DNA of 60,457 nucleotides, taken from IMG/VR virus record IMGVR_UViG_3300037119_004150, positions 1 to 60,457 of that record. One strand, 5' to 3'. Within the stretch, counting starts at the first letter, position 1, and the number at the start of each line of letters is the position of its first letter. Made by a program: the position numbers and the translations under genes. Shown one piece after another: positions 1 through 60,457 of this stretch. The notes beneath the pieces were generated by a model, which was not told where the DNA came from, made no database searches, and was given only the letters and a program-made list of their open reading frames with translations. This stretch comes from a virus.

Positions 1-270
1 AATAGAAATAAGGACCCTAATACTACCGAGAGCTTTGGTTGGGACTGGGGCTTTAAGCTCGGTGTCGGTCAATCTATCGTTAGTGCGATAGTTACTACTG
101 CCGAAGGTGCAGTTGTTGTAGAGGATTCGGAGGTTGTTGATGGTCGTTATGTTAATGCCTTGGTATCAGGTGGGTCTTTTGGGGTACGTAACAGTATACT
201 TTGTCATGTGACCCGATCTGATGCATTAACCTTCGAAGATACTATCGTTTTGAGGATCGTGAATAAGTAA
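1..270 (+). CDS. Small Ig-like virion protein, 5'-truncated copy
   Basis: The frame is open from base 1 and corresponds to the full gene at 58572-58850, lacking only its first four codons. The product resembles the small beta-sandwich proteins (GWDW near the start, VSGG in the middle) found among virion genes of many phages. Its TAA overlaps the ATG of the next gene (TAATG), so the two are translationally coupled. It is incomplete only because the window starts inside it. Confidence 0.75.
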   Translation, partial: NRNKDPNTTESFGWDWGFKLGVGQSIVSAIVTTAEGAVVVEDSEVVDGRYVNALVSGGSFGVRNSILCHVTRSDALTFEDTIVLRIVNK

Positions 271-440
271 TGCCTAGCTTACCCGATCTTCAAACCAAAA
301 TTCGTCTTGGCTATCCACTTAATCCGGAAGAGCAAGCCTTCCTTCTGAAAGCTGCCGATCAGTCTGGTGTGGAGAGTGAAAGGAAATGGCAAGGCTGGTC
401 AGAATCCCCTGACTCAGTAGTTGATCAAATTACGGAGTAG
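270..440 (+). CDS. 56-residue protein upstream of terminase
   Basis: ATG overlaps the previous stop. The product is short and soluble with a Pro/Asp/Glu-rich helical look, and ends in an acidic DQITE. It sits 3 bp before the large terminase start and is repeated at 58850-59020 with only two substitutions, which supports real coding. No family recognised; possibly a small packaging accessory. Confidence 0.7.
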   Translation: MPSLPDLQTKIRLGYPLNPEEQAFLLKAADQSGVESERKWQGWSESPDSVVDQITE

Positions 441-443
441 ATA

Positions 444-1829
444 GTGTTAATACCAGGGATGAAGGATGGGGTTCTGAGAAAGGACCTTTACTTCGAGAGT
501 ACCGGGTATCAACCACACCCAGGTCAAGTTAAGGTTCATTACGACGGTCATCGCCACCGAGCTATGTCTAATGGACGACGGTGGGGTAAGACTTTGGTTG
601 GTGGTAAGGAAATTGAGCCTTGTGCCTTTCTTAGGAATAGACTTGGTGATCCACAACGCGGTTGGATAGTAGGTCCTAACTACAGTGACTGTGAGAAAGA
701 ATTTCGCGTTGTCTATGATACCTTCAGAACTTTGGGAATCGACCAGGTTTCTACTAAGTTTTTGAAGAATACTGAGAATGGCAATATGGTTATTGCTACG
801 AACTGGGGGTTCGTTGTTGAGTGTCGATCTGCAGCGCATCCCGAGAGTCTTGTTGGTGAAGGTCTTGACTTCGCTGTTATGGTGGAAGCCGGTAGACTCC
901 ATAGGAAAACCTTCACAGAGTATGTACGGCCTGCTCTTTCGGACAAAAGAGGATGGTCATTAACCTCCGGAGTTCCGGAGATGGCTACTGAGACCTCTTT
1001 ACTCTACTGGGCTTATAAGAGGGGTCTTGAGTGGCAGACTAAGCCATGGCGCAGTTGGCGCATGCCTAGTTGGACAAATACAGTGGTTTTTCCCGGCGGT
1101 CGCAGAGACCCCGAGATTATTGAGGCTGAGGACGACTTAACAGAAGATGAATTCAAACGCCAGTATGGTGGAATGTTCGTTGACCGGGTTGGTCGTGTTA
1201 TGTCTGAATGGGATGATGAGATACATCTCAAGCGGATTAAATACAACCCTAACTGGCCCCTATATGCGGCAGTTGACTATGGGTACACCAACTTCTGGGT
1301 TTGGTTATGGATTCAGGTTGATGAGTTTGATAATGTCTACGTTTTGGGTGAGCACTACATCAAGCAAATGGATACTGAGAGGATTGCTAAGGAGATCTTA
1401 GCACCTCATCCATGGATTAAGAAGTGCGTTGCCTTCTACCCTGATCCCCATAACCCCGATGATACCAATATGCTTTCGAGGCATCTTAAGATCCCTGCTC
1501 GGTCGAATACGGGTGGGGAACTTAAGACTCGAATTGCTATGACAAGGACTAGGTTAAAGCCTAGACCTGAGGGGGCTCCCCTTTCAGAGCAACAAGCTCA
1601 AATCGTATTTGACCGGGATCGCTGTCCTCATCTCTCGTGGGAAATGAGAGAAGGCTATAGGTGGCCCGAGCATAAGAATGAGCTTAAGAATGAAGCTGAA
1701 ATTCCTATGGATAAGGATAACCATGGGCCAGAGGCTCTAGGTCGTTTTATCTATGGTTACTTTACCGCCGCCGGGGCTGTCGAGAGGTCAACCCGTCAAC
1801 GTAAGGCAAAGTTTAGGAGAGTTGCATGA
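444..1829 (+). CDS. terL: Terminase large subunit
   Basis: ATP-driven DNA-packaging motor with a C-terminal nuclease that cuts concatemers. The N-terminal ATPase shows a Walker A GRRWGKT at about residues 44-50. A Walker B-like strand (LDFAVMVEA, about 141-149) keeps Glu148, but the preceding residue is Val rather than the usual Asp. The RNase H-like nuclease follows, with acidic positions in AAVDYGYTN, DPHNPDD and the terminal DKDNHG. Start is GTG, with TTA as second codon. Its stop overlaps the portal ATG (ATGA). 461 residues is normal for the family. The same gene recurs at 59024-60409. Confidence 0.93.
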   Translation: MLIPGMKDGVLRKDLYFESTGYQPHPGQVKVHYDGHRHRAMSNGRRWGKTLVGGKEIEPCAFLRNRLGDPQRGWIVGPNYSDCEKEFRVVYDTFRTLGIDQVSTKFLKNTENGNMVIATNWGFVVECRSAAHPESLVGEGLDFAVMVEAGRLHRKTFTEYVRPALSDKRGWSLTSGVPEMATETSLLYWAYKRGLEWQTKPWRSWRMPSWTNTVVFPGGRRDPEIIEAEDDLTEDEFKRQYGGMFVDRVGRVMSEWDDEIHLKRIKYNPNWPLYAAVDYGYTNFWVWLWIQVDEFDNVYVLGEHYIKQMDTERIAKEILAPHPWIKKCVAFYPDPHNPDDTNMLSRHLKIPARSNTGGELKTRIAMTRTRLKPRPEGAPLSEQQAQIVFDRDRCPHLSWEMREGYRWPEHKNELKNEAEIPMDKDNHGPEALGRFIYGYFTAAGAVERSTRQRKAKFRRVA

Positions 1830-3385
1830 GAGACGCCGGGACGGTGACACCATGGAGCACTATCGTTCCGGTCACGATGGCCGACGAGCCGACTTACGTT
1901 CCTGAGGAGGATCGTGAGCGGATAGTTGCTTATCAGAAGTACAATAGTCTTTATTGGTCTGAGGACAGGGCAGTAGAGATTGTTAGAGACGCAGAAGATG
2001 GAACACCCCTTTATGTTCCTCGTCCTAAGATGATCGTGGATACTACTTCTCACTATCTTCTTAAAGGATTGACAATTGACCTGGAAGATCCAGAAAGCCA
2101 AAGCGAGTTAAATAGGTTTCTCCAAGCCTTCTTAGATAGAGAAGCTTTCTTAGCTAGATTCAATATCGCCAAGCTCAAGGGAGTGGCTCTTGGAGACTGG
2201 ATCTTCCATATTACAGCTGACCCCTTAGCTCCTCCTGAGCGACGAATCTCCCTAAACACAGTCGACCCTGCAGCTTACTTTCCCGAGTATCACCCAGATG
2301 ATCAAGAAACTCGAGTCGGAGTTCGCTTGATGGAGCCCTGGGTCGATCCTGCTGATACCAGTAAGACTTTGGTTAAGGTCCTTTACTATTTCTTCGACTG
2401 GCAAAACCCTGCTGATCGTCGCGTGTGGCGAGAAGAAGCTATTTGGGAGGTTGAGGATTGGTGGAATCAGGCCAAGGCAAAGAGGTATAAGAATCTTTTA
2501 ACCCTCGAACCTCTTGATGAGCGTATCACTGAGATTCCGGTTTATCACTTCAGAAATGCTGAATGGGATGGATTTCTCTTTGGTAACAGTGAATTAAAGG
2601 GTGTTGAGAAAATTTTCCGTGGTATTGACCAGGCTATTTCCGATGAGGAGATTGCTCTTGCCCTGGTTGGGCTTGGTGTCTATGCCACTGATGCTGGTCG
2701 ACCTACTGTTAATGGACGGGAGGTAGATTGGGTAGTTTCTCCAGGAACTGTTCTCGAAGTCCCGGGCGCCACTATGATCAAGCGCTTAGAGGGAATCACC
2801 TCAGTTACGCCTGTGCAAGACCACTTGCGATATCTAGACAGTGCTTTGAAAGAAGCTACTGGTACTTCAGATATTGCTTTGGGCGTGATTGACGCTCAGA
2901 CTGCTGAGTCTGGTATTGCCCTCGCCATTAAGTTTATTCCCACACTTGCCAAGATTGAATACAGGGATCAGTCTGGGTTGGCTAAGCTTACTCAGATGTG
3001 GTATGACCTTACTTCATGGTTCCGAGTATTTGAAAGTGTTGACTTCGGTGATACACTTATTCTTCCTCGGATTGGTGAGAAACTTCCAGTTAACCATGTT
3101 CAGGTCTTCAATGAGTTAAATAACCTCTTCGATCGTAAGATTATCAGCGCTCAGTTCTATAGGGATGAGTGCGAGCGAAGGTTGGGTTATAACTTCCCTG
3201 AAAACATTGCTAAGCAAATCTTGGATGAACAGATTGCCCAGCTTGAGATTATGCAACGTCAGATGCAGATTCAAGCTTCAGTTGCTCCCCCAGATAGCAA
3301 TGGCGATCAACCTAACCAATCAAATAACAAAAACAGAGTCAACGAGTCCAACGGAACAGAATCTGTTCCTGCTCAGGGCTCTTGA
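1826..3385 (+). CDS. Portal protein
   Basis: Dodecameric ring at the capsid vertex through which DNA is packaged. It is 519 residues, directly after the large terminase with an ATGA overlap, the standard order. The mix of alpha/beta wing segments and a helical C-terminus ending in a Gln/Asn-rich tail fits SPP1-gp6-like/HK97-type portals. There is no fused MuF domain. The first 52 bases recur at the right end of the window. Confidence 0.88.
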   Translation: MRDAGTVTPWSTIVPVTMADEPTYVPEEDRERIVAYQKYNSLYWSEDRAVEIVRDAEDGTPLYVPRPKMIVDTTSHYLLKGLTIDLEDPESQSELNRFLQAFLDREAFLARFNIAKLKGVALGDWIFHITADPLAPPERRISLNTVDPAAYFPEYHPDDQETRVGVRLMEPWVDPADTSKTLVKVLYYFFDWQNPADRRVWREEAIWEVEDWWNQAKAKRYKNLLTLEPLDERITEIPVYHFRNAEWDGFLFGNSELKGVEKIFRGIDQAISDEEIALALVGLGVYATDAGRPTVNGREVDWVVSPGTVLEVPGATMIKRLEGITSVTPVQDHLRYLDSALKEATGTSDIALGVIDAQTAESGIALAIKFIPTLAKIEYRDQSGLAKLTQMWYDLTSWFRVFESVDFGDTLILPRIGEKLPVNHVQVFNELNNLFDRKIISAQFYRDECERRLGYNFPENIAKQILDEQIAQLEIMQRQMQIQASVAPPDSNGDQPNQSNNKNRVNESNGTESVPAQGS

Positions 3386-7296: not shown

Positions 7297-7699
7297 AACT
7301 TGGTTCTACCAGAGAATGGTGAATGATCCTACTCTGAGTGCTTTATTGCCAGGGGGAGTTCATCAAACAACATCAATTGATAGGACTCCGACTCAAAAAC
7401 CTTTCATCATCTATCGTGTTATTGCTCACCGTCCTGATCACCGAGGTGATGACCAAGATATCCTGAGGTCAGAGAATTTTTTAGTCTTTGTTCATGATGT
7501 TCCTGGTGACTATCTTAAGATTGATAATATTCTTCGTCAACTAAAGTTACTCTATATTAATGCTAAAGATGTCAATGCTGGGGTTGGCTGCGTCTCTTGG
7601 CTCGAGGATAGTGAAGACTTTAGGGATGAGGATATGGGAACCATTATGAAGTATGGGCGGTATTCTATTCGATATATCCCTTCGGAGGTGGTATTGTGA
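7289..7699 (+). CDS. Tail terminator protein
   Basis: 136 residues of alpha/beta protein with IIYRVIAHRPDHRGDD, like lambda gpU / DUF3168 tail terminators that cap the tail tube and join it to the head. It is correctly placed after the gp10-like gene and before the tail tube. Confidence 0.72.
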   Translation: MNRTWFYQRMVNDPTLSALLPGGVHQTTSIDRTPTQKPFIIYRVIAHRPDHRGDDQDILRSENFLVFVHDVPGDYLKIDNILRQLKLLYINAKDVNAGVGCVSWLEDSEDFRDEDMGTIMKYGRYSIRYIPSEVVL

Positions 7700-8016
7700 A
7701 AAAGGTTCGTTGGGTGGCTCCTCAGCCTACTTATAGGCGGGAGTTATCCGTTGATGATCTAGTTAGTCTTGGTGCTAAGAGCGCCAAGGAAGACTTAGTC
7801 TTTTCCAGAGAGAATGGCTTCATTCTGGAATTGAATAACGAGGTTAGTGATAGCCTTGTTGACAAGCTTCCCGATGAGTTTGTCTTAGTTGATGATAAAG
7901 AGGCCGAAGCAATCGTGGAAGCTGTCGGATCAGTTGAACCACGTTTAACTCGACTTCAAGAAACAGGTGACGAATCAAGCGATGATGAGCCTGAGGATGA
8001 GTCCAGTAAATCCTAA
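7696..8016 (+). CDS. Hypothetical late protein with acidic tail
   Basis: GTG start with GGAGG seven bases upstream, overlapping the previous TGA. 106 residues: a basic aromatic N-terminus (KKVRWVAPQPTYRREL), an alpha/beta middle and a disordered Glu/Asp/Ser-rich end. No family recognised; conserved position before tail genes suggests a virion or assembly role. Confidence 0.6.
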   Translation: MKKVRWVAPQPTYRRELSVDDLVSLGAKSAKEDLVFSRENGFILELNNEVSDSLVDKLPDEFVLVDDKEAEAIVEAVGSVEPRLTRLQETGDESSDDEPEDESSKS

Positions 8017-9893: not shown

Positions 9894-12701
9894 ATGCCTG
9901 ACTACAATCTGGGTACAGCTAGAGGTCGCGTCGATATTGATGGTTCCTCTATCCGAGAAACATCCCGTGAGTTAAAGAACGCGGATATTGTACTCAGACA
10001 AACTGGTCAGTCACTCATTAACTTTGGTACTCAAGCTTTACAAGCTTTCGGGTATGTTGTTAATATTGGTCGAGAGTTCGAACGAAACATGGATTTCGTT
10101 CAATCAGTGTCGGGTGCTACTGAGCAAGATATTGCTCGGTTGACCGATGTAGCTATTGAGTTGGGTAAGAACGGTCCGTTCGGTCCCATTGAGTTATCAG
10201 AATCCTTCATTGAGCTTGCTAAGGCTGGTGTGGGAGTAGATGATATCATCAACGGGATCGGACAGTCCGTTGTTAGCCTTGGTGCAGCTGCAGATATTAC
10301 TACTGAACAAGCTGGGGATATTGTTGTTCAGACTGCAGCGATTTTCGGATTAGCCGCAGAGGAAGTACCTCGAGCTACTGACTTGATCGCTGGTGCAGCT
10401 AACGCATCTATGATTGATGTTCAGGACTTTGCCACTACTCTTAAGTATGCTGGTCCTGTTGCAGCTGCTTTGGGTATTGACCTCGAAGACCTTGCAACTA
10501 CAATCTCCTTGCTTGGTCAGTCTGGTATTAAGGGTTCTCAGGCTGGTACTTCGCTGAGGCAGGTCATGTTGAACCTGTCGGGTGCCACACCTAAGGCCAT
10601 TGAGACCATGAAAGAGTTTGGCATTATTACTGAAGATGGAACTAACATCTTCTATGATGCCGAGGGTCAACTTAAATCTCTTGATCAGGTCTTTGGACTT
10701 CTTGGTGATCATCTTGCTGGCTTAACAGAGCGGCAAAAGAGTGATGCCCTCAGAGATATGTTCGGGGTTAGGCAGTTGCCCACACTTCTGTTCCTTATGG
10801 AGCAAGGTGTTGACGCCTTCCAAACTTTCAATGATGAGATTAATGAAACTACCGCAGCTGATGTTGCAGCCGATCGGTTAGATAACCTTGATGGTTCCAT
10901 CCGTCGATTTAAGTCAACTCTTGATGCGGTCCTTCTGGGCCCCTCTGGAGGATTCCAACTTTTCTTGAAGGATATTGTTGATAGAGGGCGAGACTTACTT
11001 CTTTGGTTTGATGGGTTATCGGATAATAGCAAAAAGTTTATTATTGCTTCTATCGGAATCATTGGTATACTCAGCTTAATGGCTGGGGCTTTCTTGTTGA
11101 CCATCGGTAATATGGTCAGGGCCTTCAGAGTTATTGCAGAACTAAGTCGAATCTTTATTGACCTTATTCCCATCATCGGTAGGGTCATTACTGCGGTTAG
11201 AGCTCTTAGTATTGCGATGTTAACTAACCCAGCAGTGTTGATTGTAGCTGCGATCATTGCCCTGATTGCCATTCTTGGTTATCTGATCTACAAGCTTTAT
11301 ACGACTAACGAAGAGTTCCGGGCCTTCGTTGATGGGCTTTGGCAAAGCATCCAACGAGTCTGGGATAGCATCTTAAACTTCCTTAAGGGTATTCCTAAGT
11401 GGTTCAAGGATACATGGAAGAAAGTCAAGGAATGGACTAATCAAACCTGGGATGACATCTATGAGAAGGTCTCTAATGTCATCGGTGGTATCATTGAGTG
11501 GTTCCAGTTACTGCCCCAGAGGGCAGCAGAACAATTTACAAAGCTCAAAGAAACTGTAGTTGCTAAGTTTAGTGAGATTACTACCGCAGTTTTAGCCTTT
11601 GTAACTGGGATTCTAGGACAAATTGGCGGTGTTTTTGCCACCATTGCTACCTCCATCATTGGATTCTTAACAAGTCTTCCCGGTACACTACTCGCTATTT
11701 TCCAGACTGTAGTTACTACTGTTCTAGCTTTCTTGGAAGAACTGCCTGGTAAAATTGGATTCATCATTGGATTCATCCTTGGTAGTTTTGTTAAGTTCGG
11801 GGTTCTCCTTGAGCAGTGGGCTTTTAATACTTTCATTAGCCTTGTCAATACGATTGTTAGTTTCTTAACTCAATTACCTGGCATTGCCTGGCGATTCTTC
11901 AATCAAGTCCTTAGTACTATCATCAATATTGGTAGTCAAATTGGGAGTGCAGCTTGGAGCATTGGTAATGAAGTCTTCAGTACTCTCTGGAATCTTCTCA
12001 GTGGAATTCCTGGGTTTGTTTTTGACTTCTTTAACTCGGCATTAAGCCACGTCATCAACTTTGTTCCTCAGTTTATTGAGGCAGTGTTCAGAATTGGTTG
12101 GGGCATTATCTCAACTTTGTTCAACTTCCTCTTAAAGTTGCCTGGTCTGATTGCTGATTGGTTTATGTCTGCTCTCAGAATGGCTGTCAGTTTTATCGGC
12201 AGTTTCCTCAGAGTAGCTTGGAGCATCGGTAAGGCAATCATTGATGGGTTGTTCTCAGTCTTAAGAAACTTGCCCTCCTTGGTGTGGAATGCATTGACTA
12301 GTGTTCTTAATGTTTTCAAGAGCATGGTGAGTAGGGCCTGGAATGCGGCTAAGGACTTTGCCGGTGGTCTATGGAATGGTTTTAAGAGTGGTCTTGGTAT
12401 TGGTTCTCCCTCTTACATTGAGTATGCAATGTTTGCGGTTGAGGATCAATTGAAGCATACTGCTGGTGTTTTGAGAAGGACTTTGAACAGTATGAATGCT
12501 CAAATGTCTACTCCATTGACTGGACCGAATATAGGTTTAACTCCGGCTGGTACAGTTGCTCATCAATCGAATGGGACTTTAGTTGTTCAAGGACCGCTGG
12601 TGGGTACAGCTTACATTCGTGAAGAGCAAGATATCTATCAGCTAACTAAGCAACTTAACAGGGAAGAGGATCGAAAGAGGAGGGGTCTTGGCCTTAACTA
12701 A
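9894..12701 (+). CDS. Tape measure protein
   Basis: Sets tail length and helps DNA pass the membrane. 935 residues; at the family rule of about 0.15 nm per residue it predicts a tail near 140 nm. The N-terminal third (about 75-330) matches the phage-tail TP901 core. Strong hydrophobic segments follow around 370-480, then a long amphipathic repeat-like region with Trp/Phe spaced about every 35-40 residues, and a basic C-terminus. GGGAGGT ribosome site. Confidence 0.92.
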   Translation: MPDYNLGTARGRVDIDGSSIRETSRELKNADIVLRQTGQSLINFGTQALQAFGYVVNIGREFERNMDFVQSVSGATEQDIARLTDVAIELGKNGPFGPIELSESFIELAKAGVGVDDIINGIGQSVVSLGAAADITTEQAGDIVVQTAAIFGLAAEEVPRATDLIAGAANASMIDVQDFATTLKYAGPVAAALGIDLEDLATTISLLGQSGIKGSQAGTSLRQVMLNLSGATPKAIETMKEFGIITEDGTNIFYDAEGQLKSLDQVFGLLGDHLAGLTERQKSDALRDMFGVRQLPTLLFLMEQGVDAFQTFNDEINETTAADVAADRLDNLDGSIRRFKSTLDAVLLGPSGGFQLFLKDIVDRGRDLLLWFDGLSDNSKKFIIASIGIIGILSLMAGAFLLTIGNMVRAFRVIAELSRIFIDLIPIIGRVITAVRALSIAMLTNPAVLIVAAIIALIAILGYLIYKLYTTNEEFRAFVDGLWQSIQRVWDSILNFLKGIPKWFKDTWKKVKEWTNQTWDDIYEKVSNVIGGIIEWFQLLPQRAAEQFTKLKETVVAKFSEITTAVLAFVTGILGQIGGVFATIATSIIGFLTSLPGTLLAIFQTVVTTVLAFLEELPGKIGFIIGFILGSFVKFGVLLEQWAFNTFISLVNTIVSFLTQLPGIAWRFFNQVLSTIINIGSQIGSAAWSIGNEVFSTLWNLLSGIPGFVFDFFNSALSHVINFVPQFIEAVFRIGWGIISTLFNFLLKLPGLIADWFMSALRMAVSFIGSFLRVAWSIGKAIIDGLFSVLRNLPSLVWNALTSVLNVFKSMVSRAWNAAKDFAGGLWNGFKSGLGIGSPSYIEYAMFAVEDQLKHTAGVLRRTLNSMNAQMSTPLTGPNIGLTPAGTVAHQSNGTLVVQGPLVGTAYIREEQDIYQLTKQLNREEDRKRRGLGLN

Positions 12702-19488: not shown

Positions 19489-20448
19489 ATGGCAATTACA
19501 GCTAAACCTCGGTCAGAAGTATTTGGAAACGCAATCCCTACCAATATGAATGGTACTGTTAGGGCTAAGCTTCTTCCGGATAGACCTTACTTAACCGCTC
19601 ACTATACCGGGGTTGATGTCAACTATGCGGACCCAAATGATACCCCCGGAGAAATGAAATCGGTTCAAGCTTGGGCTGCTTCCGCTGCTAAGGGAACACC
19701 TTGGGAATATAACTGGGTCCTCGATAGTCAGGGTTTTGTTTGGACCTATGCTGGAGAATATACTGCAGCTCATTCAGCTGGAGAAAACTCTCTTGCTCAC
19801 GGGGTCCTTTTGTTACTAGGTAACAAGGATGATCCTCCCCCGGTCATGATTGATGCGTTCCGCAAGCTTAGATATGAACTTCAACGAGACCACATGATTG
19901 CTCTTAACCATCAGGTTAGGCAGCATGGACAAATGCCTGGTGCTAATACGGGATGTCCCGGTGAACTCGTTAAGGCTAAGTGGAACTCGTTTCTTGTACC
20001 CTGGACAGAGGCCCCTCCACCCCCACCACCTCCAAGCCCCAATGACTACATCATCTCCTTAGATCCATTTGGTACCTTTGTTATTAGCGAACAGTATCGG
20101 TGGCCTTATGGTATGGCTAAGTACTTATATGGCAATGGAGACCTTTGGCCCTGGATTAGCAGGTTCAACGGGTTGAAGGATGACCTTAGTGACTGGCCCG
20201 CGTCAGGAACTAAGATTAAGATTCCTAGTTTAGGAGAACCCATTACTGGACGCAATGACACTGCCTATGCTGGAGTGACTCTTCGAGTTCCACCCGAAGC
20301 GGCTGCCGCAGCGATTATTGGTGTGGTATACCCTAACGAAAGTTTTGCTAAACGAAACAGTAGGGTTCCTCTTCAATTAGCTAGATGGAATGCTGGGCAA
20401 ACTGAGTTCAAGCCTGGTGAGATTGTTTTTGTTGAAGTAAAACCCTGA
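19489..20448 (+). CDS. Endolysin: PGRP-type amidase with LysM-like C-terminus
   Basis: Cuts the bond between muramic acid and L-Ala in peptidoglycan. The catalytic domain (about 30-170) shows the zinc-ligand pattern of PGRP/amidase_2: His in LTAHYTG, AHSAGEN and the late TGCPGE segment. A run of prolines (APPPPPPPSP, about 178-187) links to a ~130-residue wall-binding part that looks like LysM repeats (LYGNGDLWPWISRFNG). No signal peptide, so export depends on the holin. Confidence 0.85.
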   Translation: MAITAKPRSEVFGNAIPTNMNGTVRAKLLPDRPYLTAHYTGVDVNYADPNDTPGEMKSVQAWAASAAKGTPWEYNWVLDSQGFVWTYAGEYTAAHSAGENSLAHGVLLLLGNKDDPPPVMIDAFRKLRYELQRDHMIALNHQVRQHGQMPGANTGCPGELVKAKWNSFLVPWTEAPPPPPPPSPNDYIISLDPFGTFVISEQYRWPYGMAKYLYGNGDLWPWISRFNGLKDDLSDWPASGTKIKIPSLGEPITGRNDTAYAGVTLRVPPEAAAAAIIGVVYPNESFAKRNSRVPLQLARWNAGQTEFKPGEIVFVEVKP

Positions 20449-20457
20449 CAGGTAAGG

Positions 20458-20489
20458 CCCGTGCTGATTGAGCAATCAATTGGTGCGGG
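20458..20489 (+). terminator. Hairpin after the endolysin
   Basis: Arms 20458-20470 and 20477-20489 pair over 13 positions with four G-T wobbles around a 6-base loop. The tail is only moderately U-rich. It lies at the end of the late transcription unit. Confidence 0.55.
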
Positions 20490-20551
20490 TCTAACTTGTG
20501 TGTTTGCTAATTTGATCCCTACGATGAGAGAATGACTGAATCGCTTGATCA

Positions 20552-36944: not shown

Positions 36945-37196
36945 ATGCCAGTTAAGGGAAAAGTTACTTTGCTCGAGGGAGAACGACGCTTTAAGCAGGT
37001 TGATTGGGGCTCTGCCGAACTTCCCCCTTGTCAGGCTCCAATGATGGGCCATGGAGTTCTTCAATGCAAGAAGCCAGGAGAGTTCGATACTCCCACTAAA
37101 GCTGGGCCTTGGGCTGACCTTTGCGAGGATCATGTAATTTCCTTGACATACGAACACATTATGATAGGATTTCACCGAATCCGTCATAAGCCATAA
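36945..37196 (+). CDS. Hypothetical Cys/His protein
   Basis: 83 residues, behind GAAAGGGG. Contains PPCQAPM, LQCKKPG and LCEDH: a likely zinc-bound C/H site like those of phage proteins reading CxxPxxxG...CxxH. Unknown. Confidence 0.65.
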   Translation: MPVKGKVTLLEGERRFKQVDWGSAELPPCQAPMMGHGVLQCKKPGEFDTPTKAGPWADLCEDHVISLTYEHIMIGFHRIRHKP

Positions 37197-37200
37197 CTCG

Positions 37201-37385
37201 ACTAGGCGAGGATAAATAGAAGTTAAGCCTAGTGCGGCCCCAATCGGGGCATCTTACCCACCGCAGTAAGCTGCTGCAACAAGACCTTAAGGATTCCTGG
37301 TTTTGGGCTTGAGGAATCTAGGTTAGGGTTAGCTCCCCTGAACTGCAGATAGGCTCTGAGAGGACGCTCTCAGGGCTTTTCTGTA
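37201..37385 (+). ncRNA. Probable structured non-coding RNA with terminator
   Basis: No reading frame fits. A chain of hairpins is visible: ACTAGGC/GCCTAGT (37201-37207 with 37227-37233), CCCC-GGGG inside GCGG/CCGC, GCAG/CTGC, GATTCCT/AGGAATC (37292-37298 with 37312-37318), and a perfect terminator at the end. No consensus promoter directly upstream, so it may be processed from the 36623 transcript. Confidence 0.5.
37353..37380 (+). terminator. Strong intrinsic terminator
   Basis: GCTCTGAGAG and CTCTCAGGGC form ten pairs around GACG, followed by TTTTCTG. Confidence 0.85.
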
Positions 37386-37414: not shown

Positions 37415-37443
37415 TTGACATTGGCTAGAAGGTTTGATATAAT
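37415..37443 (+). promoter_or_regulatory. Leaderless-type promoter
   Basis: AACAAAATTG, TTGACA, 17-bp spacer, TTTGATATAAT, six bases, ATG 37450. Confidence 0.85.
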
Positions 37444-49552: not shown

Positions 49553-49777
49553 ATGAATGGTACTACGCCTAAGGATCTCGCAGCAGAAATGAATATCAAT
49601 CCGAAGTCATTGCGTCGCTTTATTCGGGCGCATTTCGCTGATCGGGCGGGTAGTGGTAATCGCTACAATTTGACCGATGAGGCTTGCGATTACATTCGCA
49701 ATAATTATGGCAAGGTGGCGATCCGTAAGGTCGTTACACTTTCTGCGCCATTGACGGTTGTCGATTCCGACGATTGA
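49553..49777 (+). CDS. HTH DNA-binding protein (short member)
   Basis: 74 residues; AAAGG eight bases before ATG 49553. TPKDLAAEMNINPKSLRRFIRAHFADRAG and GNRYNLT match the HTH of the 47509 protein closely, but the tail is only DSDD. Codon use is AT-richer than the neighbouring cassettes. Confidence 0.72.
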   Translation: MNGTTPKDLAAEMNINPKSLRRFIRAHFADRAGSGNRYNLTDEACDYIRNNYGKVAIRKVVTLSAPLTVVDSDD

Positions 49778-49783
49778 TTTCGC

Positions 49784-49829
49784 AAATTAAAGGTCGGCTC
49801 GATTTAATTATCGGGTCGGCCTTTAATTT
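49784..49829 (+). terminator. 20-bp intrinsic terminator
   Basis: Arms 49784-49803 and 49810-49829 pair along 20 positions with three G-T wobbles around TTAATT; TAATTTAATTTCATTT follows. 49830-50046 holds no convincing gene. Confidence 0.88.
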
Positions 49830-50046
49830 TAATTTAATTTCATTTGCGATCGCAACGAAGTTGCCAACCCCCCGTGCCCCAAATTTCCGCCGCGCCCGTT
49901 TCGTGCCGTGGACCGTGTATCCCGAGAACTGCTGGCTCTCTCTAACAAAAGTCCAACCACGTATTATCTTTTGGGATCATTCACCCGGCCGAGAGATATC
50001 CCACGAGACCCCTCGTGAACCCCCCTAGACTCAAAGAAGAAGTACA

Positions 50047-52003: not shown

Positions 52004-52032
52004 TTGACAATTAGCCCTATAGATGATAGACT
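52004..52032 (+). promoter_or_regulatory. Candidate late promoter
   Basis: TTGACA, 17-bp spacer, TGaTAGACT (extended -10). Predicted start near 52039, the first base of the leader stem. It heads the whole structural operon. Confidence 0.62.
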
Positions 52033-52038
52033 TGGTAT

Positions 52039-52150
52039 GATTCCCTGAGGAGTCAAATCGGGAATGGTGATGCTGGCCGCCGAACCCCCGCCCGATTACA
52101 TCGTTGCCGCGACCTCACTCGACCTCACAACGATGACTCCTCAGGGAATC
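52039..52150 (+). ncRNA. Three-way-junction leader RNA of the late operon
   Basis: P1: perfect 17-bp stem 52039-52055 with 52134-52150. P2: AATCGGG (52056-52062) with CCCGATT (52091-52097). P3: TCGTTG (52101-52106) with CAACGA (52128-52133); its loop has CGACCTCA twice. The helices join with only three unpaired bases. P1 hides the GAGGAG of a 33-codon frame starting at 52064. No U-run follows, so it is a cis-acting leader or a processed RNA. Confidence 0.6.
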
Positions 52151-52165
52151 GTCACTGTTCGTTAG
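52064..52165 (+). CDS. Possible 33-residue leader peptide
   Basis: MVMLAAEPPPDYIVAATSLD... stopping at TAG 52163. GAGGAG lies about 11 bases upstream, inside stem P1. GC-rich third positions look coding. It could be a regulatory leader peptide or a tiny virion gene. Confidence 0.4.
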   Translation: MVMLAAEPPPDYIVAATSLDLTTMTPQGIVTVR

Positions 52166-52185
52166 GAACCATGAAGGAGATCTCC

Positions 52186-52833
52186 ATGGATGAGATGACT
52201 ATGGTCCTGGACTTCACGAATGCAGATCTGAAGCCGAATGGGAAACCGGTCATTGATTCGCAGGGTCGACTTCCAGGACAACAGGGTGGGCGCCCTGTGA
52301 AATCGCAGAGTCCTAAACAAATTAGGGCTCGGGCAAGGCGGAAAAGGGCTATTGCTGATGAGGAGTTAGCAAGGTTATATAAGCCCTTAGATGAATGGGA
52401 TGCTGAGGAGTTAGCGAGAGGCCGTCCGAGGGCAAAGGATGGGTCTTTCAAGGGCAAGGCACCGGCATTTATCGATCGAGCACTACATGAGCAGATTGTG
52501 CGCCGTTTTGAAGAGGTCGTGCGGATCAAGATGAACGAGCACACTGTCGACGCACTTCGTTTTCTTAGCGATGTGCTGAATAACAATGAGGAGGACGATC
52601 GGGGGCGACCTATTGTCTCAGCTTCGACTAAGTTGGACGCAACTAAGTTTCTCATTGAGCATGTGATCGGCAAGCCAAGGCAGCGTATGGAGACGGATAT
52701 CTCTGTTAAGTTGCAAGGTGTTTTGGCTATGGCTATGGTCAATCCAAGTCAAACTCAGCAGGGTCAATTTGAGTTAGCTCAAGGTTATATTGATGCCGAA
52801 AGCTGGGAAGAAGAGGACGATGGGAACGGCTAG
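52186..52833 (+). CDS. Terminase small subunit-like protein
   Basis: 215 residues. ATG 52186 has GGAG six bases before; ATG 52171 would contain that site inside the gene. Basic N-terminus with RPVKSQSPKQIRARARRKR, then the actinophage-type core (ELARGRPRAKDGSFKG, TVDALRFLSDVL, LDATKFLIEHVIGKP). By position at the start of the late operon it should recognise phage DNA for packaging. Confidence 0.68.
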   Translation: MDEMTMVLDFTNADLKPNGKPVIDSQGRLPGQQGGRPVKSQSPKQIRARARRKRAIADEELARLYKPLDEWDAEELARGRPRAKDGSFKGKAPAFIDRALHEQIVRRFEEVVRIKMNEHTVDALRFLSDVLNNNEEDDRGRPIVSASTKLDATKFLIEHVIGKPRQRMETDISVKLQGVLAMAMVNPSQTQQGQFELAQGYIDAESWEEEDDGNG

Positions 52834-53137
52834 CGTCGAAGTCGACGTTGATGTTGAGGTTAAGATGTGCGATATCTGCGGTTTTCCGGAAGACCGTCAT
52901 AACTTCGTACATGCATTTAGCTTGAGAGGGGAAGGCCTGAGAGTGAAAAAGGATGATGATAGAGGTGATCAGGCCAATAAGGGTGATCCCGATTCCCAGG
53001 GATCAATTGGGGTTGCTCTGAGGGGCGACCCGGTACTTCGACTTGCTTTAATTAGGCGAGAGGTTATCACCGCTGATGACCTCAGTCAGATTGAGGCTGA
53101 GTTAAGAGCCTCAGGAATCGCAGGCAGTGGTCAGTAA
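52820..53137 (+). CDS. Hypothetical protein with C/H site
   Basis: 105 residues from ATG 52820. Val/Asp alternation at the start, then CDICGFPEDRHNFVH, a likely zinc site; helical end. Overlaps both neighbours. Unknown. Confidence 0.62.
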   Translation: MGTASVEVDVDVEVKMCDICGFPEDRHNFVHAFSLRGEGLRVKKDDDRGDQANKGDPDSQGSIGVALRGDPVLRLALIRREVITADDLSQIEAELRASGIAGSGQ

Positions 53138-53495
53138 ACCATGGTTTAGCCCTGAGGTCGTTGATCAAATTCTGGGTATTGGACTCGAGTGCGCTCCAGA
53201 AGAAGCATGTGGGGTAGTCTTACCCAACTTACGAGTCATTCAGTTGAGAAACTGTAGTGACTTGAATAGGGAGACATCTTACGAGGTCAATACCCAGGAT
53301 TTGATCGAAATAATTGCAGATTACATAGCTGAGTCTGGTATTGAAGCGGTTAATTTCACGAGGGCTCACTTTTTGATCTGGCATACCCATCCGAGCGGGA
53401 ACATCGGTCCCAGCCACGGCGATATGTGTAATAGGCTGGACAATTTTATGTATGGTGTGGTAGCACTGCCATCGGGACAGGCTACGTTGTTTTAA
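53127..53495 (+). CDS. MPN/JAB-type metalloprotease-like protein
   Basis: 122 residues, GTG start. Early Glu/Cys (APEEACGVVLP) and the zinc motif WHTHPSGNIGPSHGDM (HxH-x7-S-x2-D) are the JAMM signature, as in the N-terminal domain of lambda gpK. No NlpC part follows. Likely tail-tip processing or wall entry. Confidence 0.78.
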   Translation: MVSKPWFSPEVVDQILGIGLECAPEEACGVVLPNLRVIQLRNCSDLNRETSYEVNTQDLIEIIADYIAESGIEAVNFTRAHFLIWHTHPSGNIGPSHGDMCNRLDNFMYGVVALPSGQATLF

Positions 53496-58572: not shown

Positions 58573-58850
58573 TGCCGAACTATAGAAATAAGGACCCTAA
58601 TACTACCGAGAGCTTTGGTTGGGACTGGGGCTTTAAGCTCGGTGTCGGTCAATCTATCGTTAGTGCGATAGTTACTACTGCCGAAGGTGCAGTTGTTGTA
58701 GAGGATTCGGAGGTAGTTGATGGTCGTTATGTTAATGCCTTGGTATCAGGTGGGTCTTTTGGGGTCCGTAACAGTATTCTTTGTCATGTGACAAGGTCTG
58801 ATGCCTTAACCTTTGAAGATACCATCGTTTTGAGGATCGTGAATAAGTAA
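58572..58850 (+). CDS. Small Ig-like virion protein (complete copy)
   Basis: 92 residues, the full version of the truncated gene at base 1. ATG overlaps the fibre stop (TGATG). Beta-sandwich pattern with GWDW and VSGG. Confidence 0.76.
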   Translation: MPNYRNKDPNTTESFGWDWGFKLGVGQSIVSAIVTTAEGAVVVEDSEVVDGRYVNALVSGGSFGVRNSILCHVTRSDALTFEDTIVLRIVNK

Positions 58851-59020
58851 TGCCTAGCTTACTTGATCTTCAAACTAAAATTCGTCTTGGCTATCCACTT
58901 AATCCTGAGGAGCAAGCTTTCCTAATGAAAGCTGCTGATCAGTCTGGTGTGGAGAGTGAAAGGAAATGGCAAGGCTGGTCAGAATCCCCTGACTCAGTAG
59001 TTGATCAAATTACGGAGTAG
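58850..59020 (+). CDS. 56-residue protein upstream of terminase, second copy
   Basis: Same as 270-440 with two substitutions (PD to LD, LLK to LMK). Conserved coding despite silent changes in the DNA. Confidence 0.7.
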   Translation: MPSLLDLQTKIRLGYPLNPEEQAFLMKAADQSGVESERKWQGWSESPDSVVDQITE

Positions 59021-59023
59021 ATT

Positions 59024-60409
59024 GTGTTAATACCAGGGATGAAGGACGGGGTTCTGAGAAAGGACCTTTACTTCGAGAGTACCGGGTATCAACCACACCC
59101 AGGTCAAGTCAAGGTTCATTACGACGGCCATCGCCATCGAGCTATGTCTAATGGACGACGGTGGGGTAAAACTTTAGTTGGTGGCAAGGAAATTGAACCT
59201 TGTGCCTTTCTTAGAAATAGGCTTGGTGATCCTCAACGCGGTTGGATCGTAGGTCCTAACTATAGTGACTGCGAGAAGGAATTTCGCGTTGTCTATGATA
59301 CCTTCAGAACTTTGGGAATCGATCAGGTTTCTAATAAGTTTCTGAAGAATACTGAAAACGGTAATATGGTTATTGCGACGAACTGGGGGTTCGTTGTTGA
59401 ATGTCGATCTGCGGCGCATCCCGAGAGTCTTGTTGGTGAGGGTCTTGACTTCGCTGTTATGGTGGAAGCCGGTAGACTCCATCGGAAAACCTTCACAGAG
59501 TATGTACGACCTGCTCTTTCGGACAAAAGAGGATGGTCTTTAACTTCTGGAGTGCCAGAGATGGCTACAGAGACTTCTCTTCTTTACTGGGCTTATAAGA
59601 GGGGTCTTGAGTGGCAGACTAAGCCCTGGCGAAGCTGGCGCATGCCAAGCTGGACAAATACAGTGGTTTTTCCCGGTGGTCGCAGAGACCCCGAGATTAT
59701 TGAGGCCGAGGACGATTTAACAGAAGATGAATTCAAACGCCAGTACGGTGGAATGTTCGTTGACCGGGTTGGTCGTGTTATGTCTGAATGGGATGATGAG
59801 ATACATCTCAAGCGGATTAAATACAACCCTAACTGGCCCCTATATGCGGCAGTTGATTATGGGTACACCAACTTCTGGGTTTGGTTATGGATTCAGGTTG
59901 ATGAGTTTGATAATGTCTACGTTTTGGGTGAACACTACATCAAGCAAATGGATACTGAGAGGATTGCTAAGGAGATCTTAGCACCTCATCCATGGATTAA
60001 GAAGTGCGTCGCCTTCTACCCTGATCCCCATAACCCCGATGATACCAATATGCTTTCGAGGCATCTTAAGATCCCTGCTCGTTCAAATACGGGTGGGGAA
60101 CTTAAGACTCGAATTGCTATGACAAGGACTAGGTTGAAGCCTAGACCTGAGGGGGCTCCCCCTTCGGAGCAACAGGCTCAGATTGTTTTTGACCGGGATC
60201 GCTGTCCTCACCTTTCATGGGAAATGAGAGAAGGCTATAGGTGGCCCGAGCACAAGAATGAGCTTAAGAATGAAGCTGAGATTCCGATGGATAAAGATAA
60301 CCATGGGCCAGAGGCCCTAGGTCGTTTTATCTATGGTTACTTTACTGCCGCCGGGGCTGTCGAGAGGTCAACCCGTCAACGTAAGGCAAAGTTTAGGAGA
60401 GTTGCATGA
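59024..60409 (+). CDS. terL: Terminase large subunit, second (sibling-strain) copy
   Basis: 461 residues, same length and motifs as 444-1829; differs by Thr to Asn after DQVS and Leu to Pro in APLSEQ. Almost all DNA differences are silent, so both versions are under purifying selection. Confidence 0.93.
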   Translation: MLIPGMKDGVLRKDLYFESTGYQPHPGQVKVHYDGHRHRAMSNGRRWGKTLVGGKEIEPCAFLRNRLGDPQRGWIVGPNYSDCEKEFRVVYDTFRTLGIDQVSNKFLKNTENGNMVIATNWGFVVECRSAAHPESLVGEGLDFAVMVEAGRLHRKTFTEYVRPALSDKRGWSLTSGVPEMATETSLLYWAYKRGLEWQTKPWRSWRMPSWTNTVVFPGGRRDPEIIEAEDDLTEDEFKRQYGGMFVDRVGRVMSEWDDEIHLKRIKYNPNWPLYAAVDYGYTNFWVWLWIQVDEFDNVYVLGEHYIKQMDTERIAKEILAPHPWIKKCVAFYPDPHNPDDTNMLSRHLKIPARSNTGGELKTRIAMTRTRLKPRPEGAPPSEQQAQIVFDRDRCPHLSWEMREGYRWPEHKNELKNEAEIPMDKDNHGPEALGRFIYGYFTAAGAVERSTRQRKAKFRRVA

Positions 60410-60457
60410 GAGACGCCGGGACGGTGACACCATGGAGCACTATCGTTCCGGTGACCA
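60406..60457 (+). CDS. Portal protein, 3'-truncated second copy
   Basis: First 17 codons of the portal gene (MRDAGTVTPW...), cut by the window end. Confidence 0.8.
   Translation, partial: MRDAGTVTPWSTIVPVT

What the first reader, a model, noticed from the sequence alone, without database searches (positions are those of the whole stretch)
52004..52200. Perfect three-way-junction RNA heads the structural operon
A 17-bp perfect stem encloses two hairpins with only three unpaired junction bases, and the promoter's predicted start falls on the first base of the stem. The stem sequesters a GAGGAG site for a 33-codon frame inside the RNA. This looks like a switch or attenuator controlling entry into the late genes, and I know of no described equivalent.
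Basis: partly seen in the sequence, partly recalled or inferred. Interest (0 to 1): 0.8.

Follow-up and report, generated by a model that had tools for sequence, protein, structure and literature searches.

The report
Stem starting a phage late mRNA

Summary
A 17-bp perfect inverted repeat (52039-52055 / 52134-52150) starts at the predicted +1 of an extended -10 promoter, just before the terminase small-subunit gene (TerS, start 52186). It is not chance (z -4.7). But all the signal is in the outer stem P1: the interior that makes the three-way junction folds no better than shuffles (z -0.7). Eighty TerS relatives were searched. About 17 leaders (roughly eight unrelated stem sequences) have a 10-24 bp stem starting within about 6 nt of the predicted start and ending 23-57 nt before the next gene in most. 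In the eight most similar ones RNAalifold returns only P1, with 6 of 16 pairs changed on both sides. Own-arm pairing beats 20,000 permutations, and 14 of 16 leaders fold better on the transcribed strand. The three-way junction recurs only in one distant pair (L165/L166); the 33-codon frame and the GAGGAG sequestration are not conserved; Rfam has no match. Best reading: a 5'-terminal guard hairpin that protects or insulates the late mRNA, used where the same promoter type does not drive a leaderless gene. The closest known kind is the 5' stabilising stem-loop (ompA, papA, aprE). Function is inferred. A second, stronger hairpin (z -7.8) lies inside the JAB gene at 53161-53308.

The parts
52004..52032 (+). 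Late promoter: TTGACA (52004-52009), 17-nt spacer, extended -10 TGA-TAGACT (52027-52032)
   Evidence: near-identical promoter in L005, L015, Curtobacterium phage Shrew
52037..52042 (+). ATGATT over the predicted start (+1 = G52039, uncertain by about 2 nt); the ATGAT word recurs at this spacing in most relatives
52039..52055 (+). P1 5' arm GATTCCCTGAGGAGTCA, from predicted +1
52134..52150 (+). P1 3' arm TGACTCCTCAGGGAATC
52056..52097 (+). P2 hairpin AATCGGG/CCCGATT (no comparative support)
52099..52134 (+). P3 hairpin ATCGTTG/CAACGAT (no comparative support)
52064..52165 (+). 33-codon ATG frame with GAGGAG (52047-52052) upstream; not conserved
52174..52179 (+). AAGGAG ribosome site of TerS, downstream of P1
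52186..52833 (+). Terminase small subunit-like gene (likely start 52186; the ORF opens at 52171)
   Evidence: relatives; Huwbert homologue annotated terminase small subunit
59024..60409 (+). Terminase large subunit, downstream
   Evidence: (phrog_2, 8e-29)

Best explanation
The element is a 5'-terminal guard hairpin of the late (terminase/structural) mRNA. RNA polymerase starts at or within a few nt of the first base of P1, so as soon as the leader is made the 5' end is locked in a 13-24 bp stem. That stem leaves no single-stranded 5' end for pyrophosphohydrolase, 5'-sensing RNase E or RNase J, and keeps upstream RNA away from the first ribosome site, which lies 23-57 nt beyond the stem in most members. 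What sits inside the stem (a 4-nt loop up to about 97 nt, including the three-way junction here) is free to vary. In relatives where the same promoter type drives a leaderless gene, a ribosome on the AUG at +1 could do the same guarding. Shown computationally: promoter, stem, its anchoring at the predicted +1, covariation, strand preference. Inferred: transcription start, stability function, the ribosome equivalence.
For: Stem anchored at predicted +1: helix score rises sharply at -2 to +7 and is flat from -40 to -4. 13-24 bp stems starting at +1 to +4 in the leaders tabulated; 23-57 nt to TerS in most, 93-106 nt in L065/L069 with approximate ends. Own arms pair far better than swapped arms: summed -527 versus -338 +/- 20, 0 of 20,000 permutations. 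RNAalifold on a plain MAFFT alignment of 8 leaders returns only P1, 6 of 16 pairs with changes on both sides; slid controls fail. 14 of 16 leaders fold better on the transcribed strand. Loop length and content not conserved. Window promoters mostly start leaderless genes and have no stem at +1; the late promoter alone has one. Shrew, L137 and L035 have a leaderless ORF in its place and no stem. Review: RppH and RNase E need single-stranded 5' ends, which explains the stabilising effect of 5' structure, and a hairpin at or near the 5' end stabilises long downstream regions in Bacillus (PMC3997798).
Against: No transcript ends, half-lives or probing data exist. The closest relative by TerL/TerS, L005, keeps the promoter and ATGATCC but has only a weak broken stem (7+5 bp; z about -1). 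L020 has only a short local hairpin. Most TerS relatives have another gene directly upstream and no such leader. A covariance model of the eight-leader group does not recover the window or the other leaders, so across groups only the architecture is shared. Stems this long could also be RNase III substrates, which would remove the guard.
Confidence: 0.5

Rival explanations
1. Processing site: the long stem is cut by RNase III soon after synthesis and the product with a new 5' end is the working late mRNA.
For: Stems of 13-24 continuous pairs, up to 23 bp in L056 and L120, are of the size RNase III can cut; a second long stem lies further down the same operon.
Against: The stem is pinned to the transcript start rather than to a gene boundary; cutting would remove whatever is pinned. 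In L120 the 4-nt loop leaves one short duplex.
Confidence: 0.15
2. RNA antitermination element: the nascent stem binds RNA polymerase or a phage factor and makes it terminator-resistant across the long late operon, as HK022 put RNA does in its early operons.
For: Position at the very start of a long operon; conserved pairing on the transcribed strand.
Against: put-type RNAs need conserved sequence; here stem and loop sequences are unrelated between groups and only pairing is kept.
Confidence: 0.1
3. DNA-level site: the inverted repeat is a terminase (pac) site or an operator at +1 and about +100, not an RNA element.
For: It lies next to terS, where pac sites often lie; the 5' arm in the window is itself a partial palindrome TGAnTCCnnnnGGAnTCA.
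Against: Arm spacing varies from 4 to 97 nt, G-U pairs are kept on the transcribed strand, 14 of 16 leaders fold better on that strand, and the stem tracks the promoter even where another gene comes first (L015).
Confidence: 0.1
4. Regulated switch or attenuator that controls entry into late genes, with the 33-codon frame as sensor.
For: The GAGGAG site is in P1 and a frame lies inside.
Against: Frame not conserved; no terminator; no alternative fold seen; no Rfam match.
Confidence: 0.06
5. 5' leaderless AUG plus stem: the conserved ATGAT at the start is a leaderless start codon of a mini-ORF (3 to about 36 codons) and the stem stalls or resets the ribosome.
For: ATGAT kept at the same distance from the -10 in most leaders; leaderless genes are common in this phage.
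Against: ATG is 5 nt after the -10, against 7 nt at most of the phage's leaderless genes; frames vary in length and L024 has ACG.
Confidence: 0.09

Closest known systems
5'-terminal mRNA-stabilising stem-loops (E. coli ompA and papA, B. subtilis aprE; T7 gene 10 leader from my own knowledge)
   Same: Stem at or near the transcript 5' end, sequence not important, ribosome site free downstream, in front of highly expressed genes
   Different: Longer, perfectly paired stems; kept as an architecture across many phage lineages at one promoter; stabilising effect not tested here
HK022 put RNA
   Same: Structured RNA made early in a phage operon
   Different: put needs specific sequence and acts in early operons; here only pairing is conserved
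phi29 packaging RNA (pRNA)
   Same: A junction-bearing RNA near packaging genes
   Different: No Rfam match; the junction is not conserved; lies in an mRNA leader
Leaderless genes of actinobacteria and their phages
   Same: Same promoter type, 5' end possibly occupied from the start
   Different: A ribosome rather than a stem would hold the 5' end

Membership tests
5'-terminal stabilising stem-loop | Stem begins within a few nt of the transcript 5' end | tested here: met
   Predicted +1 only; anchoring profile, table; start not mapped
5'-terminal stabilising stem-loop | Pairing matters, sequence does not | tested here: met
5'-terminal stabilising stem-loop | First ribosome site outside the stem | tested here: met
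   First gene 23-57 nt downstream in most leaders; in the window the site is partly paired locally
5'-terminal stabilising stem-loop | Lengthens mRNA half-life | not testable with these tools
   needs half-life measurement
put antitermination RNA | Conserved sequence in stem-loops | tested here: not met
   unrelated stem and loop sequences between groups
Terminator attenuator / riboswitch | GC stem followed by U run, or match to a known riboswitch family | tested here: not met
   no terminator on this strand; no Rfam match
phi29 pRNA | Match to the pRNA family (Rfam) | tested here: not met
RNase III processing site | Cut ends within the stem in vivo | not testable with these tools
   no RNA data
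pac site | TerS binds the duplex DNA here | not testable with these tools
   indirect evidence against: variable spacing and strand preference

The most novel reading that the evidence does not exclude
These phages follow a general rule: a late transcript never begins with a bare 5' end. Either a leaderless start codon puts a ribosome on it at once or a sequence-free stem is built at +1, and the two interchange in evolution at the same promoter, working like a cap.
Probability: 0.25. Interest if true: 0.7.

Novelty: new variant of a known kind. Interest (0 to 1): 0.5.

Why it matters
If right, a group of phages that probably infect actinobacteria uses a sequence-independent 5' hairpin as a cap-like guard on its most important transcript, interchangeable with leaderless translation. 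That would be testable in cultured actinobacteria, where the 5'-end rules of mRNA decay are poorly known, and would give stable 5' leaders for expression tools.

Tried and rejected
DNA search of phage records with the leader: nothing. Stem pattern in viral contigs: one hit, L003, an AT-rich unrelated locus with a single arm, taken as chance. Pattern for the promoter plus TGAGGAG: only L005. Pattern CATGATCCCGCCGGAGC: same group members plus unrelated coding hits. Covariance model of the eight-leader group: finds its own members and weak coding or opposite-strand hits, not the window, so a sequence family spanning all leaders is rejected. Pattern search had a wrong spacer and says nothing. Genome contigs: two TerS relatives, L172 and L173; the stretch read upstream of each looks coding and shows no such leader. 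Cultured relatives Triscuit and Shrew have a gene overlapping TerS upstream and no leader; Wollypog's 111-nt gap shows no long stem by eye. Considered and dropped: intrinsic terminator, riboswitch, 33-codon peptide, pRNA. The permutation treats related leaders as independent, so the slid control and the spread over about eight unrelated stem sequences carry more weight. A6 was built from P1 arms with the loop replaced by GAAA and leaves out L031 and L091, which have bulges; one search is the unbiased version.

Full report
The window is a whole IMG/VR virus record of 60,457 bases. Its two ends carry 95%-identical copies of a 1.87-kb stretch with the large terminase gene, so it is probably one circular genome assembled past its start with strain variation. 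Annotated relatives of its terminase genes infect Microbacterium, Curtobacterium, Gordonia and Arthrobacter, with the best hits about 55-62% identical; an actinobacterial host is likely but not shown.

A perfect 17-bp inverted repeat lies at 52039-52055 and 52134-52150. An extended -10 promoter, TTGACA-17-TGATAGACT, lies just upstream, and a start 7 nt after the -10 falls on G52039. The leader folds at -60.9 kcal/mol, z -4.67. The interior alone, which forms the three-way junction, has z -0.71. What exceeds chance is the outer stem.

The gene behind it (52186-52833) is a small terminase subunit by its relatives. Three scans gave about 90 loci with this gene. Many have another gene directly upstream and no leader. 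The rest gave a clear pattern. In the window, L024, L031, L036, L048, L056, L058, L063, L091, L120, L065, L069, L071, L073, L089, L165 and, with a bulge, L015, a promoter is followed at once by a stem of 10-24 pairs. The first paired base is at +1 to +4 in nearly all, and the stem ends 23-57 nt before the first gene in most. A score for the best helix starting at each position is flat upstream, rises at -2 and peaks at +5 to +7. In the window itself most other strong promoters start leaderless genes and have no stem.

Pairing rather than sequence is kept. The 5' arm of each leader pairs with its own downstream region far better than with others': summed duplex energy -527 against -338 +/- 20, never reached in 20,000 permutations. 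For the eight most similar leaders a plain MAFFT alignment gives only P1 in RNAalifold, with 6 of 16 pairs changed on both sides. With the arms set in register, 96% of cells pair, against 31-58% when the arm is slid by 1-3 nt. Fourteen of sixteen leaders fold better as the transcribed strand than as its complement. Between groups the stems are unrelated in sequence, and a covariance model of the eight does not find the others. Common ancestry of all leaders is therefore not shown; the shared thing is the arrangement.

Details that do not survive: the junction (only L165/L166 have another multi-hairpin interior), the 33-codon frame, and sequestration of GAGGAG. The closest terminase relative, L005, keeps the promoter and ATGATCC but only a weak stem.

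Mechanism. The most likely role is to guard the 5' end of the late mRNA. A review states that RppH and RNase E need single-stranded 5' ends, which explains the stabilising effect of 5' structure, and that a hairpin at or near the 5' end stabilises long downstream regions in Bacillus (PMC3997798). Leaderless genes make up about 14% of mycobacterial genes (PMC7148126). In Shrew, L137 and L035 the same kind of promoter starts a leaderless gene in place of the stem, which suggests stem and ribosome are alternatives. This step is inference. RNase III processing, antitermination and a DNA site remain open, with lower weight.

Known equivalents: no Rfam family matches. Six full-text searches of the held open-access library found no description of such leaders in phages; many subscription papers are not held, so this is weak evidence of novelty. 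By working principle it belongs with 5' stabilising stem-loops; membership in function is untested.

Noticed in passing
window 53161-53308 (in ORF 53127-53495, Prok-JAB): A 22-bp stem inside a coding gene, z -7.75, the strongest window in a whole-genome scan. The same stem at the same codon (about 12, span 148-152) occurs in L005, L015/L016 and L141 with paired changes that also change amino acids. Other coding stems near here recur in L056/L091/L052 and in L072/L077/L080-L087. Function unknown; worth its own study.
   Followed up: partly
window 33593, 34747, 36623, 37415, 38886, 43295, 44572, 47474, 48047, 48727 (+) and 47361 (-): Near-identical TTGACA-17/18-TGATATAAT promoters with ATG about 7 nt after the -10: a set of leaderless early genes.
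   Followed up: partly
window 37196-37256: Pistol ribozyme (Rfam RF02679, 55.4 bits), downstream of a promoter-like site at 37143 and upstream of the leaderless promoter at 37415.
   Followed up: no
window 1-1875 and 58582-60455: 95%-identical ends: the contig is probably circular with strain variation across the join.
   Followed up: partly
window 7681-7840, 49681-49840, 20341-20500, 10141-10300: Other windows with folding z below -6.5; the genome as a whole is biased to structure (mean z -0.76).
   Followed up: no
L005 7579-7678: Possible H-type pseudoknot CAGCGA/TCGCTG with GGGTC/GACCC between promoter and TerS, in place of the long stem (seen by eye).
   Followed up: no
L065 2780-2940: Downstream of the guard stem a loop word AGCCCGTACCT can pair with AGGTgcACGGGCT, and a tRNA-like 3' half follows; Rfam finds no tRNA there.
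   Followed up: no
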